From: Rheinheimera sediminis
Lineage (GTDB): Bacteria; Pseudomonadota; Gammaproteobacteria; Enterobacterales; Alteromonadaceae
Length of the DNA: 38,486 bases
Assembly: GCF_004005375.1 (NCBI RefSeq)
Contig: NZ_RZUF01000030.1
Span: forward strand, 1 to 38,486
Reading direction: 5' to 3'
Below, in pieces: positions 1 through 4,267 of the stretch (its first letter is position 1; each line of letters begins with the position of its first letter). The notes under the pieces were generated by a model, which was not told the DNA's origin, ran no database searches, and saw only the letters and a program-made list of their open reading frames with translations. The position numbers were made by a program, and so were the translations under genes.

Positions 1-20
1 TGTGGATCACTTTTAGACTG

Positions 21-278
21 TTGTTGACAAAAGCGTTTAAATACATGTTTATGACAGGCTCTATTAACCGCTACGAAGCTGATCGGCTTGGTATTTGCCA
101 CCTTGCCGCACGTGTACAGGACTTAGAACAAAAAGGGTTTAGATACCGTTATCAGGACGAAAATGGCGTTGCTGATTTTCACGGCATAACGCACGACAAG
201 ATCCGGCGCTATTTTATCGACTGGCAGAATATGTCAGCAGAAACAAGGGCTTACTTTGTGGGGTGGATTTATGACTAA
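21..278 (+). CDS. Small helix-turn-helix protein of the integrated element
   Basis: An 85-residue protein, probably DNA-binding. The stretch GSINRYEADRLGICHLAARVQDL followed by a QKGFRYRY-like segment resembles the winged-helix proteins common in prophages and islands, where a GSI-x(3)-EA start is followed by a recognition helix containing LAARV-x-DL. The start is uncertain: an in-frame stop lies at 15-17, so the gene must begin after it, at TTG 21, TTG 24, ATG 45 or ATG 51. No start has a convincing ribosome site. Its last 8 bases overlap the primase-helicase start, so the two are probably translated together. It may regulate or assist replication of the element; that role is inferred from position only. 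Confidence 0.6.
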   Translation: MLTKAFKYMFMTGSINRYEADRLGICHLAARVQDLEQKGFRYRYQDENGVADFHGITHDKIRRYFIDWQNMSAETRAYFVGWIYD

Positions 279-2754
279 TCGCACAAAACAAAGCCCCGCA
301 ACCGGACAAGTTAACGAGGCATTTGATACAACAATCGAACACGAGTTTAGCAGTACAAAACTTAACCTGTCCAGAACTGTGACAGGGGGAGTACGCAATA
401 CCCAATTACAACCGTTTGACCTAACACTATCTGAACTGATCGCCATGTTCCAGCCACAGAATGTCAAAGCGGGGCCTAAAGACGGCCCTTACTTTGTCCG
501 GGGCCATAGCGAAGGAAACAGAAGCGATAAGGCTATGCTTCAGGCTAAACACCTGCTGATCATTATCGATGGTGATAGTTCAGTCACGGAAGACGGTGAA
601 ATTATAGAAGGTGCGCCCGATCCTAAGTTGACGCATGAAGCTATGAAACAGGCTGGTATTGAACACCTGATTTACACCAGCCACAGTCACCACAAGCACG
701 GCCAAAGTTTTAACAAATGGCGTTTATTAGTGCCTAGTGATGCCACAGCGCAGACATTAGAAAGCGGTGTTGATGCCATTTTAGACATATTGCATTTATC
801 CGGGGTGAAAGTAGCGCCCGTATGTGAAAACAATAGCCTGTCACAGCCTTGGTTTTTCCCAAGGGTTGAAGCTGGCCGGGCTGAGGGTTATTACAGCGCA
901 AGCTTTGAAACAGGCAAGCCGTTTACAGTGCCTGAAGCAATGCCAGAGCCTACAACAGCACCAGCCATTACAAAGCCTAAGCAAAGAGGTGAAAGTGTTG
1001 TACAGGCTTACTGTGATCGTTATCCGTTGAGCCAGCAAGTTGAGACAATGGGATTTAAACGAATCAGGGAAAACCGCTATCTGCCGCCAGAAAGTAAAAG
1101 TGGTGTTGCTGGTGCTAAGGTACTAATCGGGGAGCGAGACGGACGCGAACGGCTATACATTCACAACACAAGTCACAAACAGCACGGTAGAGGCTTAGAT
1201 TCCTTTGATCTGTACTGTGAGCAAGAACACAATGGCGACTTTAAAGCCGCTGTAAAGGCCGCTGCTGAGTTGTTAGGGCTTGCTGGTACTGATGATGCCT
1301 TTGCACTGTTTATTGATGCTGAAGATCAAACAGAAGCGGTAAAACCAGAGCCGTTGCCCGTAGATGTATCTGGATTACGTATTGAAACACCGCCGGGGTT
1401 AGCTGGTGCTATATGCGAGTATTTGAACCGAACCGCAAAACGCCCTATACCGCTAATTTATCCTATTGTTGCTTTGCAAATGCTGTCACTAGCCGCAGGC
1501 AACCGCAAAGGGTTAGACAGTATTAAACTTAACCTGTTAACACTGGCTATTGCGCCCAGTGCCGCAGGCAAAGAGCACGGCCAAAGCTGGTTAGCTGAAA
1601 CAGCAGCACAGTTAAAGTTAGGTCGGCATGTTGTAGGTGGAATTTCTTCTGATGTGGATATGATCCGCAATCTTATAGAAGGTGATGGGCGCTGCTGTTA
1701 TCGGATTGATGAAATTCAGGGCATGTTTAAAGCAATTAATAGCAAAAATGCGAGTACCTATGAAAGCAAGATAGGTGACTTAATTTTGACGCTCGCAACT
1801 TCAAAAGTTTACCTGTTTGCGGGCAATCATCGCCGCCAGTTTTTTAAAGAAATAGATCATGATATTGACCAGCTAAAAAAGAAAATTACCAAAGCCGAAG
1901 AAGGGCAAAAGCCTGAAGCTGAAGAAGTGCCAGACCTTGAAAAACTGAACCGGGCTTTGCGTTGGTTATTCAAAAAGCGCGACTTTATAGAAAATGGCTG
2001 GCCTGATCCTGTGGTCTCAATAATGGGCCATTCTACCCCCGGCGGCCTTGATAGTCTGATCACTGAGGAAAACATAGGTAGTGGGTTAATAGGCCGCTGT
2101 CTGGTTATTAGGTGCGCTGAAGAAAGGGAAAAGCTACAACAGGTAAAGGAAACGCCTTTTTTCGGTGATGTGGATATTCTTAACCGTTTGCACCTTATCA
2201 ACAATGGCAGCCTGCAACCATTAAAAGTAAACCCCAAAGCCCGGCAAATGTTGGACGAGATCCAAAGCTACTATGATCAAGACCAGCGATTGAACGCGCC
2301 TGTAATGGGGGCAATTTATGCGCGGGTAATGGAGCAAGTTAACAAAGTAGCAAGCCTGCTGGCGCTGGAAGTTGGAGAAGTACAGTCAGAGCACGTTAGT
2401 TATGCCTTTGCTTTGGTTGCCCGTTGTATTGATGACGTTGGTTATTTACTGCAAAAGGACGCAGCACAAAAGGCTAATGCAACTATTGCTGATATTGCCT
2501 TGCACACCAGAGCAGAAGTGAAGCGCAGACTTAAAACAAAAACTGAAGGTATTGCACCCAGCACCTTAAAGCAGGCTGTCTTAAAATGCTTTGCAAAGTT
2601 AAAGCAGATAACTGACCAGCACAACAAGAGCCCGCAAACTAAGGACAAAACCGACCTATACGAGCAAATTATTAAGCGTATGGAAGAAGTCGGGGATATT
2701 GAGCTAAAACAGTCTGGCAAAACGAAGCGTTACGTTTTAACAGGGGGCCTATAA
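271..2754 (+). CDS. Primase-helicase (archaeo-eukaryotic-type primase plus DUF3987-like ATPase)
   Basis: An 827-residue replication protein of the element. The N-terminal third has the signature order of archaeo-eukaryotic primases: a hydrophobic strand with an acidic pair (LLIIIDGD, about residues 94-101), an S-x-H type motif (TSHSHH, about 136) and a basic strand (KWRLLVP). The middle has a P-loop-like APSAAGKE (about 428) and a Walker B-like CYRIDEIQ (about 475), as in DUF3987 and primase-associated helicases. The C-terminus looks like a winged helix. ATG 271 is preferred over TTG 256: it has GGTGGA about 5 bases upstream and overlaps the preceding gene by 8 bases. A structured AT-rich region follows directly and may be its origin. 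Domain assignments are by motif reading and the exact family is unverified. Confidence 0.75.
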   Translation: MTNRTKQSPATGQVNEAFDTTIEHEFSSTKLNLSRTVTGGVRNTQLQPFDLTLSELIAMFQPQNVKAGPKDGPYFVRGHSEGNRSDKAMLQAKHLLIIIDGDSSVTEDGEIIEGAPDPKLTHEAMKQAGIEHLIYTSHSHHKHGQSFNKWRLLVPSDATAQTLESGVDAILDILHLSGVKVAPVCENNSLSQPWFFPRVEAGRAEGYYSASFETGKPFTVPEAMPEPTTAPAITKPKQRGESVVQAYCDRYPLSQQVETMGFKRIRENRYLPPESKSGVAGAKVLIGERDGRERLYIHNTSHKQHGRGLDSFDLYCEQEHNGDFKAAVKAAAELLGLAGTDDAFALFIDAEDQTEAVKPEPLPVDVSGLRIETPPGLAGAICEYLNRTAKRPIPLIYPIVALQMLSLAAGNRKGLDSIKLNLLTLAIAPSAAGKEHGQSWLAETAAQLKLGRHVVGGISSDVDMIRNLIEGDGRCCYRIDEIQGMFKAINSKNASTYESKIGDLILTLATSKVYLFAGNHRRQFFKEIDHDIDQLKKKITKAEEGQKPEAEEVPDLEKLNRALRWLFKKRDFIENGWPDPVVSIMGHSTPGGLDSLITEENIGSGLIGRCLVIRCAEEREKLQQVKETPFFGDVDILNRLHLINNGSLQPLKVNPKARQMLDEIQSYYDQDQRLNAPVMGAIYARVMEQVNKVASLLALEVGEVQSEHVSYAFALVARCIDDVGYLLQKDAAQKANATIADIALHTRAEVKRRLKTKTEGIAPSTLKQAVLKCFAKLKQITDQHNKSPQTKDKTDLYEQIIKRMEEVGDIELKQSGKTKRYVLTGGL

Positions 2755-3068
2755 ATGGCCCTTCTGTTTAGCTGGCCGGGCTTTTGTTTTATCTGCTTTA
2801 TACCTTCTTTATACCATTGGAGGTATAAGGCAAAGCCCTTTATTTACAAGGCTTAGAGAGAACTTTATACCTTTATACCATTATTTCTATGTTTTGATTT
2901 ATTTTGATTCTTTACCAGTTCCCATACTTTTAAAACAGAATATCTATATTTATGGGGATTTTCGGTATAAAGGTATAAAGCAGCCTACACACCAAGCCCG
3001 GCAAGGCTTTTACCTTATACCCGCCAAAGTATAACGAACCGATAAAGGTTTAATGTTAGGGTAAGAGC
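2755..3068. other. Iteron-rich, AT-rich non-coding region; candidate replication origin
   Basis: There is no gene here. The 9-mer CTTTATACC occurs at 2796-2804, 2807-2815, 2863-2871 and 2871-2879. Its reverse complement GGTATAAAG is at 2964-2972 and 2972-2980. The doubled copies at 2863-2879 and 2964-2980 are exact 17-bp reverse complements flanking 84 bp of mostly A+T sequence. Shorter relatives (GGTATAAG 2822-2829, CTTATACC 3014-3021) lie outside. This architecture, directly downstream of a primase-helicase gene, resembles iteron origins of phage satellites and plasmids. It could instead be an operator for the small downstream gene. Confidence 0.55.
2863..2980. repeat. 17-bp perfect inverted repeat of doubled iterons
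   Basis: The left arm CTTTATACCTTTATACC (2863-2879) and right arm GGTATAAAGGTATAAAG (2964-2980) are perfect reverse complements. Each arm is two 9-mers sharing one base, so the period is 8. The spacer 2880-2963 is AT-rich. Confidence 0.9.
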
Positions 3069-3338
3069 ATGACCAGAGAGCAGCAACTTCAGCACCGCCA
3101 GCAAGTTTTAACAGTGGTTCACTTGTTTATAGCTGGTAAGTGGACTCCCCCCAGTTACAAAGCCACTACCGCTTTACTGAACAAACAAAACATTAGCACC
3201 AGCAGGGGCAATCATTGGACAGAAAAAAGGCTGTTCAGATTCCTGCAAAACGCTGGTTATTCTGGGCTGTGGGGGTTATCAAAAGAAACACGTAAGCCAA
3301 AAGTGAAGCCAGCTTGTAGGCTGACTACCCCTATATAA
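3069..3338 (+). CDS. Small basic protein resembling a recombinase-type DNA-binding segment
   Basis: An 89-residue basic protein. The middle reads TTALLNKQNISTSRGNHWTEKRLFRFLQNAGY, which resembles the helix-loop-helix found in serine-recombinase "recombinase" domains (an A-x-x-LN-x-x-GI-x-T-x-RG-x-x-W motif), but there is no catalytic domain. It is probably a DNA-binding accessory protein. The start ATG 3069 has a modest AGGGTAAG-type ribosome site. It is transcribed in the same direction as the primase, just beyond the iteron region, so it could bind or be regulated by those repeats. The function is not known. Confidence 0.55.
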   Translation: MTREQQLQHRQQVLTVVHLFIAGKWTPPSYKATTALLNKQNISTSRGNHWTEKRLFRFLQNAGYSGLWGLSKETRKPKVKPACRLTTPI

Positions 3339-3352
3339 CCCTGATAATTGCC

Positions 3353-3396
3353 CTAAGGTTACACTAAGGGTTTAGTAAGGTTACAGTAAGGATTAG
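3353..3396. repeat. Four tandem 11-bp iterons
   Basis: The consensus is STAAGGNTTAN, starting at 3353, 3364, 3375 and 3386, with TAAGG exactly every 11 bp (3354, 3365, 3376, 3387). Copies 1 and 3 share TAAGGTTACA. An inverted CCTTACC and another CCTAAGGGTAA (3411-3421) follow. Spacing of about one helical turn puts all copies on one DNA face, as for a cooperatively binding Rep, excisionase or repressor. Confidence 0.8.
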
Positions 3397-3459
3397 CCTT
3401 ACCTAGATCGCCTAAGGGTAATTAAAGACCAGTACGCGAACGCAGCAAAAGGGTATTTT

Positions 3460-3548
3460 CTTACCCCCTAAAAAGGGTAAGTTTCCCGTCTATAAAAAGG
3501 GAATTTTTGATAGCTTTAAAAAGCTAACGAATAAGGGGAGAGAGCCCC
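3460..3548. other. Run of four short inverted repeats, one terminator-like
   Basis: The hairpins are CTTACCC/GGGTAAG (3460-3466, 3475-3481), TTCCC/GGGAA (3483-3487, 3499-3503) followed by TTTTT at 3504-3508, TAGCTTT/AAAGCTA (3511-3517, 3520-3526) and GGGG/CCCC (3535-3538, 3545-3548). The second looks like a weak rho-independent terminator for rightward transcription. The rest are unexplained. Confidence 0.55.
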
Positions 3549-3587
3549 AAAGAGTAAATTTTCTGACTATGAAAAGTCATACTTTGA

Positions 3588-3926
3588 TTAGCCAAATTTA
3601 TGAGGAGGATAAGCGTCCCAGCTATCGAAAAGCTCAAACTTAGTTTTTTTATCATTCGCAAAATCGCAACGGTAAACTTTATTACTCCAAGCTCCAAATC
3701 CATTTTGAAACTTCGCTTTGCCAAAAATCACTGTATCTACAGAATTACGCTTTAAAACTTCAGTATTTACAATTTCAGCCGTGTATTTTGCTTCAGCCTG
3801 AACAGCATCATGGCAAATACTTATGGCTCCATCGTTATCGTTTCTAGTCATGAGAAGCAGAAAGGCCATAAATACACAGAAGCTAAAAATAGCCATGAAA
3901 AAAATTATAAAAACTGACTGACGCAT
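3588..3926 (-). CDS. Small membrane-anchored hypothetical protein
   Basis: A 112-residue protein of unknown function. Residues 5-27 form one strong hydrophobic segment (an anchor or uncleaved signal), after which an ICHDAVQAEAKYTAE segment begins a small polar domain with two cysteines (around 38 and 85) that would lie outside the cytoplasm and could form a disulfide. The start ATG at 3926 has AGGA 6 bases upstream (AAAGGACTATT). It faces against the rest of the element and sits nearest the tRNA attachment site, the usual position of cargo genes. I recognise no family. Confidence 0.6.
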   Translation of the reverse strand: MRQSVFIIFFMAIFSFCVFMAFLLLMTRNDNDGAISICHDAVQAEAKYTAEIVNTEVLKRNSVDTVIFGKAKFQNGFGAWSNKVYRCDFANDKKTKFELFDSWDAYPPHKFG

Positions 3927-4190
3927 AATAGTCCTTTATCATTTTCAGTATTGCGTTAACAAGCAAGGGTAGAATATTTTTAAATAGATGTCTTCAACTA
4001 ATCTTTAGCACTGAAAAAAAACAGCAGGGCAAGACTTATCAAAGTTAAAAATAGAAATTGTATTTTTTTGATGTGTTACGTGAAGGCAGTAGGAAATATC
4101 AATTTTTTTACTAATTCCGATCCGCCACCGATCCGCAGCACAGAAAAATTCAGAATGTTAGTAGGTGTTAACTATGGAAGTCTTCAAAAA
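3927..4190. other. Intergenic end of the element next to the tRNA
   Basis: No credible gene is seen. It holds the upstream region of the 3588-3926 gene, an A+T-rich stretch and, near the tRNA, the direct repeat at 4117-4136. The element-chromosome junction is expected at or just inside the tRNA 3' end, but the other att copy is outside the window, so the exact crossover cannot be placed. Confidence 0.5.
4117..4136. repeat. 11-bp-period direct repeat near the tRNA attachment site
   Basis: CCGATCCGC occurs at 4117-4125 and again at 4128-4136, an 11-bp period, about 55 bp from the tRNA 3' end. Paired short direct repeats at this distance are typical of arm-type binding sites of tyrosine integrases; that function is inferred. 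Confidence 0.6.
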
Positions 4191-4267
4191 TGGTGGCCCC
4201 ACCTGGACTTGAACCAGGGACCTGCCGATTATGAGTCGGATGCTCTAACCAACTGAGCTATAGGGCC
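4191..4267 (-). tRNA. ileX: tRNA-Ile(CAU), ileX-like
   Basis: This is a 77-base cloverleaf read leftwards. The acceptor 5' arm GGCCCTA pairs with TGGGGCC before the discriminator A, and CCA is encoded (4191-4193). The D-arm AGCTCAGTTGGTTAGAGC and T-loop GGTTCAAGTCC are standard. The anticodon is CAT in context CTCATAA. It could be elongator Met, but similarity to E. coli ileX and the same location downstream of rpoD favour the isoleucine tRNA whose C34 is converted to lysidine by TilS. Its 3' end faces the integrated element and probably served as the attachment site. Confidence 0.9.

What the first reader, a model, noticed from the sequence alone, without database searches (positions are those of the whole stretch)
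2755..3021. Symmetric iteron structure after a primase gene: candidate origin of an unrecognised replicating island
CTTTATACC occurs four times to the left and its complement GGTATAAAG twice to the right of an 84-bp A+T-rich core, with the inner doubled copies forming an exact 17-bp inverted repeat (2863-2879, 2964-2980). It directly follows a primase-helicase gene. Iteron arms flanking an AT-rich core resemble phage-satellite and plasmid origins, but I know no described element with this 9-mer.
Basis: partly seen in the sequence, partly recalled or inferred. Interest (0 to 1): 0.78.

Follow-up and report, generated by a model that had tools for sequence, protein, structure and literature searches.

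The report
Replication origin of a minimal satellite
The repeats next to the primase gene are very probably the DNA replication origin of a tiny phage-satellite-like island; the same mirror-image layout recurs in related islands even where the repeat word itself has changed.

Summary
The repeats are real and larger than reported: a mirror-symmetric array of about ten iterons (window 2796-3047), A(++-) B(++), AT-rich core, B'(--) A'(+--), in a small tRNA-integrated island: integrase, ORF overlapping it, AlpA-like regulator, primase-helicase, array. All six primase relatives alignable over their whole length (33-94% identity, window included) have the array, with 11-bp and 42-43-bp spacings; more distant partial relatives do not. 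In Arsukibacterium the iteron word has changed throughout (TATAC to TRTAG). A 5.1-kb Vibrionaceae island has the same layout with an unrelated word (TGGTCAA). Only 0.3% of island windows are less stable than the core. The tested origin of E. coli PICI EcCICFT073 has the same signed order by eye, with other spacings. Best explanation: origin of a PICI/PICMI-like satellite, bound by its own primase-helicase. New here are the tRNA-site lineage in Rheinheimera and relatives, the phased ten-site layout and the word change. Binding and replication were not tested. In this strain an apparent IS interrupts a neighbouring gene, so activity is uncertain.

The parts
271..2754 (+). primase-helicase (putative Rep), 827 aa; predicted iteron binder
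   Evidence: PHROG 3022 'DNA primase' E 3.2e-53; PF13148 E 3.9e-6, 26.7 bits, just under the cut-off of 27; relatives 94, 80, 79, 62 and 33% identical
3..278 (+). 3' part of a small winged-helix gene (HTH_39), apparently interrupted by an IS at the contig end
   Evidence: PF14090 E 5.1e-7; the first 28-31 bases recur at or near ends of contigs C45, C38, C22, C16 and C43; IS inferred, family not searched
2796..2830 (.). outer left iteron cluster A (+ + -): CTTTATACC 2796+, 2807+, CCTTATACC 2822-
2863..2879 (+). inner left iteron pair B (+ +), left arm of the exact inverted repeat
2880..2963 (.). 84-bp AT-rich core, putative DNA-unwinding element
   Evidence: mean stacking energy -1.109; 0.32% of equal windows in window 1-4190 are less stable
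2964..2980 (-). inner right iteron pair B' (- -), right arm
3013..3047 (.). outer right iteron cluster A' (+ - -): CCTTATACC, CGTTATACT, CTTTATCGG; the last two decayed here, better kept in R. soli
3069..3338 (+). small Recombinase-domain protein, 89 aa
   Evidence: PF07508 E 6.9e-6
3588..3926 (-). cargo gene of unknown function
   Evidence: phrog_13160 E 1.7e-10; no PADLOC match at E 0.01
4187..4238 (.). right attachment site, 3' half of tRNA-Met(cat) 4191-4267(-)
   Evidence: the other copy is at C9:2725-2786 (L023), beside integrase L023:1145-2500(-)

Best explanation
Window 2796-3047 is the replication origin (ori) of a PICI/PICMI-like phage-satellite island (relatives 7.0-7.9 kb) integrated in a tRNA-Met(cat) gene. 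Inferred mechanism: when the island is switched on (AlpA-like protein plus integrase; by analogy with PICI/PICMI work) it excises as a circle. Copies of its own primase-helicase bind the helically phased iterons A and B on the left and their mirror images on the right, melt the AT-rich core, and load two helicases head to head for theta replication. Copies are then presumably packaged by a helper phage. Shown here: the array, its conservation and phasing, the coordinated change of the iteron word, the melting-prone core, and the gene and att context. Inferred: binding by the primase-helicase, origin activity, helper dependence.
For: All 6 of 6 primase-family members alignable over their whole length (window included) have the array after the primase. 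Spacing: A1-A2 11 bp in 6 of 6; A3-B1 42-43 bp in 6 of 6, mirrored on the right at 42-43 bp in the 5 scored there. Layout scan of 58 loci: window 18, L161 18, L020 18, L022 16, L024 15, L025 14, L021 12, the 51 others 9 or less; 232 shuffles reach at most 8, 572 real control regions at most 9. L021: TTTRTAGN 8 times in the array and 2 outside, TTATACC 1 and 0; for TTATACC the window has 8 and 0, L020 10 and 0. Independent case L161: same layout with TGGTCAA, in a 5.1-kb island between 40-bp tRNA-Arg repeats. EcCICFT073, whose pri-ori plasmid was maintained significantly better than plasmids lacking ori or pri (PMC6092414, Fig. 2 legend), has the same signed order by eye. The array stays when neighbours change: reverse-strand cargo gene before it in L024, extra ORF after it in L020, Recombinase ORF cut to five codons in L022, none listed in L161.
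Against: No replication or binding data. By the simple inverted-repeat score only the window and L020 exceed their shuffles; L021 (11 against a maximum of 12), L022 (10, 13), L024 (10, 12) and L025 (9, 11) do not. More distant or partial relatives lack the layout: L107 and L109 score 5, L026 5, L031, L033 and L034 5, L017 7; also L162, 5. EcCICFT073 scores 9, the level of the best control. The full-length AlphaFold model is poor (pLDDT 40) and the C-terminal model has no PDB match at E<=0.001, so the DNA-binding domain is unproven. PF13148 is not detected in the L021 or L025 primase. The window's outer right cluster is decayed and an apparent IS interrupts the winged-helix gene, so this copy may be inactive. 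No helper phage is known.
Confidence: 0.82

Rival explanations
1. The array is an operator: a regulator (AlpA-like, winged-helix or Recombinase-domain protein) binds it to control neighbouring genes.
For: Short inverted repeats between genes; three kinds of small putative DNA-binding protein are encoded nearby.
Against: About ten phased sites around a melting-prone core is more than an operator needs (judgement). Flanking genes change while the array stays (L024, L020, L022, L161). The iterons are rare elsewhere in the islands: TTATACC 8 in/0 out window, 10/0 L020, 8/1 L022, 6/1 L024, 5/2 L025. The AlpA-like protein is nearly identical between L020 and L021 although the word changed.
Confidence: 0.08
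2. The array is the origin, but is bound by the initiator of a helper phage; the island copies its helper's iterons.
For: Satellites depend on helpers; the word change in L021 could track a different helper. PLE replicated only in ICP1-infected cells even when its own RepA was expressed (PMC7145576, passages).
Against: The island carries its own primase-helicase beside the array, and the EcCICFT073 pri-ori plasmid was maintained in DH5alpha (PMC6092414). An exact-pattern scan of viral contigs for the doubled arms found 0. tblastn of the primase in phage genomes matched 192 records, none covering 80% of it; the 30 listed match about half (residues 362-772) at about 32%.
Confidence: 0.06
3. It is a packaging (pac/cos) or partition site.
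For: Satellites need a packaging site; iterons also occur in centromeres (recalled).
Against: Position after the primase, mirror symmetry around some of the least stable DNA of the island, and the same signed order as a tested PICI origin.
Confidence: 0.04

Closest known systems
PICI replication origin (EcCICFT073 of E. coli; SaPI type)
   Same: Directly 3' of the primase gene; two sets of oppositely oriented iterons around AT-rich DNA; signed order ++, -, +++, --, +, -- read by eye in L170 against (++-)(++)(--)(+--) here
   Different: Different iteron (TCTACC) and spacings (scan score 9); primase not detectably related by hhalign; EcCICFT073 carries capsid-type genes; the SaPI origin papers are not held, so the SaPI comparison is recalled
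PICMI (Vibrionaceae minimalist satellites)
   Same: Gene order int, ORF overlapping int, AlpA-like, small ORF, primase, cargo; about 5-8 kb; DUF3987-type primase in most members here
   Different: tRNA site instead of fis; found in Rheinheimera, Arsukibacterium and a Paraglaciecola MAG; the PICMI main text has 0 occurrences of 'iteron'. Its authors' relaxed model (fis optional) gave 135 elements, 67 of them in Vibrionaceae; whether the other 68 include this lineage I could not check
P4-like satellites
   Same: Primase and helicase fused in one protein (PMC7145576 passage); tRNA integration (recalled)
   Different: No Pfam match to capsid or terminase families in the island proteins scanned; P4 was not compared directly

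Membership tests
PICI (Gram-negative) | Origin immediately 3' of the primase gene with two iteron sets flanking an AT-rich region | tested here: met
   in L024 a cargo gene lies between; definition from PMC6092414
PICI (Gram-negative) | int and AlpA-type activator, core genes in one direction | tested here: met
   int PF00589 in L020, L022, L023, L024, L025 (L021 int not scanned); AlpA-like HTH_17 below Pfam cut-off in L020, L021, L022, L024, over it (with Phage_AlpA) in L025; the window strain's copy was read only as DNA; orientation
PICI (Gram-negative) | Interference, capsid or terS genes (present in many PICIs, not all) | tested here: not met
   no such Pfam match in the island proteins scanned; not every ORF was scanned
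PICI (Gram-negative) | Helper-phage induction and packaging | not testable with these tools
   needs experiments
PICMI | int, alpA and primase core; most subfamilies have an ORF overlapping int by 1, 4 or 13 nt | tested here: met
   overlap 1 nt in L020 and L023, 4 nt in L021, L022 and L025; L024 start uncertain; definition
PICMI | Small genome without capsid genes | tested here: met
   att to att 7.8 (L020), 7.4 (L021), 7.0 (L024) and 7.9 kb (L025); no capsid Pfam match in the proteins scanned
PICMI | Integration next to fis (called a hallmark) | tested here: not met
   tRNA-Met(cat) in window, L020, L021, L024; tRNA-Pro in L025
PICMI | Vibrionaceae host | tested here: not met
   L020-L022 record titles; L024 and L025 are in the window's own family, f1
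Iteron plasmid | Free replicon with a plasmid Rep | tested here: not met
   att-flanked chromosomal island; tblastn of the primase in 72,556 plasmid records: no match

The most novel reading that the evidence does not exclude
A single origin class, the phased mirror array A(++-) B(++) core B'(--) A'(+--), unites minimal satellites of Alteromonadales and Vibrionales and perhaps enterobacterial PICIs. The scaffold (signs and helical spacing) stays fixed while the iteron word and its reader change together across all sites, giving each satellite a private origin loaded head to head by its own primase-helicase.
Probability: 0.45. Interest if true: 0.66.

Novelty: new variant of a known kind. Interest (0 to 1): 0.5.

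Why it matters
It describes PICI/PICMI-like satellites at a tRNA site in Rheinheimera and relatives, predicts where a PICMI origin should be sought, and gives a testable rule (sign order plus 11-bp and 42-43-bp spacing) for finding such origins whatever their iteron word. The Arsukibacterium element, with the word changed throughout the array, is a natural experiment on how an initiator and its origin change specificity together.

Tried and rejected
Plasmid origin: no primase match in the plasmid collection. Host DnaA-driven origin: no TTATNCACA within 120 bp of the six cores. General abundance: TTTATACC-N60-90-GGTATAAA hits 27 of 196 related genomes, of which only G000 and G001 are known members of this primase family, so the short pattern alone is not diagnostic.

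Canonical PICMIs at fis: none recognised among the 30 Vibrionaceae DUF3987 loci scanned (29 fetched plus L108); two (L151, L152) gave a loose fis-like motif hit that I did not follow. So I could not test whether true PICMIs have this layout. L162, whose primase is 33% identical to L161's over part of its length, does not show it (score 5). L171 and L172 score 6 and 4. One matched locus (G462, two stops inside) was not fetched.

Distant relatives of the window's primase: L107 (G249) and L109 (G698) score 5; L026 (G017), L031, L033, L034 score 5 and L017 7. L016, L018, L019 (G111, E 1e-3), L032 and L037-L041 were not tested.

Which protein reads the iterons: L021-only changes at positions conserved in the other four close relatives include Q768G, K772N and F774S near the primase C-terminus. 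But L021 and L022 each have 31 such changes, so this is only a hint. AlphaFold on the full protein failed (pLDDT 40); the C-terminal fragment (pLDDT 62; helices then a hairpin) found no PDB fold at E<=0.001. PDB sequence search: one match, E 0.73.

Empty-site test: three same-genus genomes show one att match in the 3.7-4.0 kb fetched, but the left chromosomal flank did not align beyond att, so no clean empty site. Cargo as defence genes: 0 of 10 proteins matched PADLOC at E 0.01.

Caveats on the counts: the layout windows were drawn from this family, so its members score high partly by construction; L161 and the controls are the independent cases. One site could be counted for both A2' and A1' (window, L161, L021). 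For L024 the scan start was set by hand after its cargo gene; from its primase stop it scores 4, and its 7-mer test is p=1.0 for the same reason. In one search, 9 of 55 loci reach the floor p=0.005: five family members, and L096, L141, L161, L166. Core limits were set by me.

Full report
Observation. The structure is larger than described. Written in the CTTTATACC direction, the window has A1 2796+, A2 2807+, A3 2822-, B1 2863+, B2 2871+, core 2880-2963, B2' 2964-, B1' 2972-, A3' 3013+, A2' 3028-, A1' 3039-. The last two are decayed here and better kept in R. soli (L020). The order is a mirror image about the core.

Context. The first 28-31 bases recur at or near ends of contigs C45, C38, C22, C16 and C43, as expected of an IS end. 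The island continues on C9 (L023), which carries the integrase, the next ORF, an AlpA-like ORF and the start of the winged-helix gene. The island lies at a tRNA-Met(cat) gene beside a gene I take for rpoD (recalled from its sequence), with an att repeat of about 51 bp. Complete relatives, att to att: L020 Rheinheimera soli 7.8 kb, L021 Arsukibacterium ikkense 7.4 kb, L024 7.0 kb, L025 7.9 kb at a tRNA-Pro. L022, a Paraglaciecola MAG, is cut by its contig end. Gene order in these five: integrase (L021's not scanned with Pfam), an ORF overlapping it by 1-4 nt (L024: start uncertain), an AlpA-like HTH_17 protein, one or more small ORFs (HTH_39 in L020, L022, L024, L025), primase-helicase (825-831 aa as aligned), array. 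A Recombinase-domain ORF follows in window, L020, L021, L024 and L025; in L022 it stops after five codons.

Conservation. All 6 of 6 primase relatives alignable over their whole length keep the array. A1-A2 is 11 bp in all six; A2-B1 is 56 bp in five and 57 in L021; A3-B1 is 42-43 bp, and the mirrored distance on the right is 42-43 bp in the five where it was scored. Eleven and 43 bp are about one and four helical turns, so A and B sites would lie on one face of the helix (inference). Not all ten sites are intact everywhere: L025 lacks B2 and B2', L022 and L024 have a degenerate B2'. As plain inverted repeats only the window and L020 beat their shuffles; the others stand out by copy number (L021, L022, L025) or layout. 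Partial or distant primase relatives do not show the layout: L107, L109, L026, L031, L033 and L034 score 5, L017 7.

Coordinated change. In L021 the printed array reads T(A/G)TAG at all ten sites where the others read TATAC at nearly all. By pattern, TTTRTAGN occurs 8 times in the 278-bp array and 2 times in the other 7,105 bp; TTATACC occurs once (inside the core) and 0 times outside. In the window and L020 the TTATACC counts are 8 and 0, and 10 and 0. A change of this kind across both arms is what an evolving binding specificity would give, and is hard to explain by drift.

Survey. I collected DUF3987 primase genes found in the order (19 of 384 genomes; 18 of these fetched) and in Vibrionaceae (29 of 329 genomes; family recognised by RctB_central), plus G698, EcCICFT073 and two viral contigs. 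Of 58 regions scanned, the six family members score 12-18, L161 scores 18, and the other 51 score 9 or less; shuffles reach 8 (232) and real control regions 9 (1 of 572). L161 is a 5.1-kb Vibrionaceae element between 40-bp repeats of a tRNA-Arg end: integrase, ORF overlapping by 4 nt, AlpA-like HTH_17 (below cut-off), small ORF, 468-aa DUF3987 primase (E 1.5e-32), TGGTCAA array. Its primase is not detectably related to the window's in pairwise tests, although both match PF13148 (the window's just under cut-off). So the layout was kept, or reached again, with another word and a very distant primase. It is rare: 1 of 30 Vibrionaceae loci scanned.

Known origins. [quoted passage not shown] I fetched EcCICFT073: its TCTACC iterons run ++, -, +++, --, +, -- by eye, the same signed order, though with different spacings (score 9, no better than the best control). 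PMC10803314 (abstract, outline, passages, sections 10 and 12) describes PICMIs: the same core genes and order, integration at fis as a hallmark, complete elements only in Vibrio genomes, no mention of iterons. Its relaxed model, with fis optional, gave 135 elements of which 67 were in Vibrionaceae, so similar gene sets outside that family had been seen. [quoted passage not shown] A library search for satellites, Alteromonas, PICI, integrase and phage together found 0 papers; one for Rheinheimera with phage satellite found one SGI1 paper, of which I saw the listing.

Mechanism. The core is among the least stable DNA of each island: 0.3, 0.3, 0.4, 0.6, 1.5 and 2.1% of equal windows are less stable in window, L020, L021, L022, L024 and L025, and 1.3% in L161. 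No DnaA box lies within 120 bp of the six cores. The array does not depend on either neighbour: L024 has a cargo gene between primase and array, L020 an extra ORF after it, and in L161 one search lists no same-strand ORF of 55 aa or more between array and tRNA. I therefore take it as an origin bound by the island's primase-helicase. That step is inferred; the structure predictions did not help. The N-terminal half looks like an archaeo-eukaryotic-type primase from recalled motifs only; no library confirmed it.

Verdict. Origin of a PICI/PICMI-like minimal satellite: likely. A PICMI by definition: no, since fis and Vibrionaceae are not met. A PICI-type origin: yes by architecture. This strain's own copy may be inactive, because an apparent IS sits in the winged-helix gene and the outer right iterons are decayed.

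Noticed in passing
window 1-31; L023:1-28: Apparent IS ends at the contig boundary, inside the winged-helix gene of the island; the same end recurs on contigs C45, C38, C22, C16 and C43.
   Followed up: partly
L193 (G012), L194 (G005): The same tRNA-Met att site holds other islands (about 5.9 and 13.5 kb between att copies) with different genes, so it is an integration hotspot.
   Followed up: partly
L035:3035-3300; L036:6081-6350: Viral contigs with a primase-like ORF followed by TGTCCTAAA iterons in both orientations (layout score 8).
   Followed up: partly
L166, L096, L141: Other DUF3987 primases followed by strong iteron sets (ATATCCC, TCCGCCA, TGTCGCC) that do not pass the mirror-layout scan.
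   Followed up: partly
window 3588-3926: Reverse-strand cargo gene at the right end matches phrog_13160 (unknown function); the genes at this place differ between relatives.
   Followed up: no
L111 (G128): A weak RctB_central match (E 8.6e-13) outside f21, in family f12.
   Followed up: no
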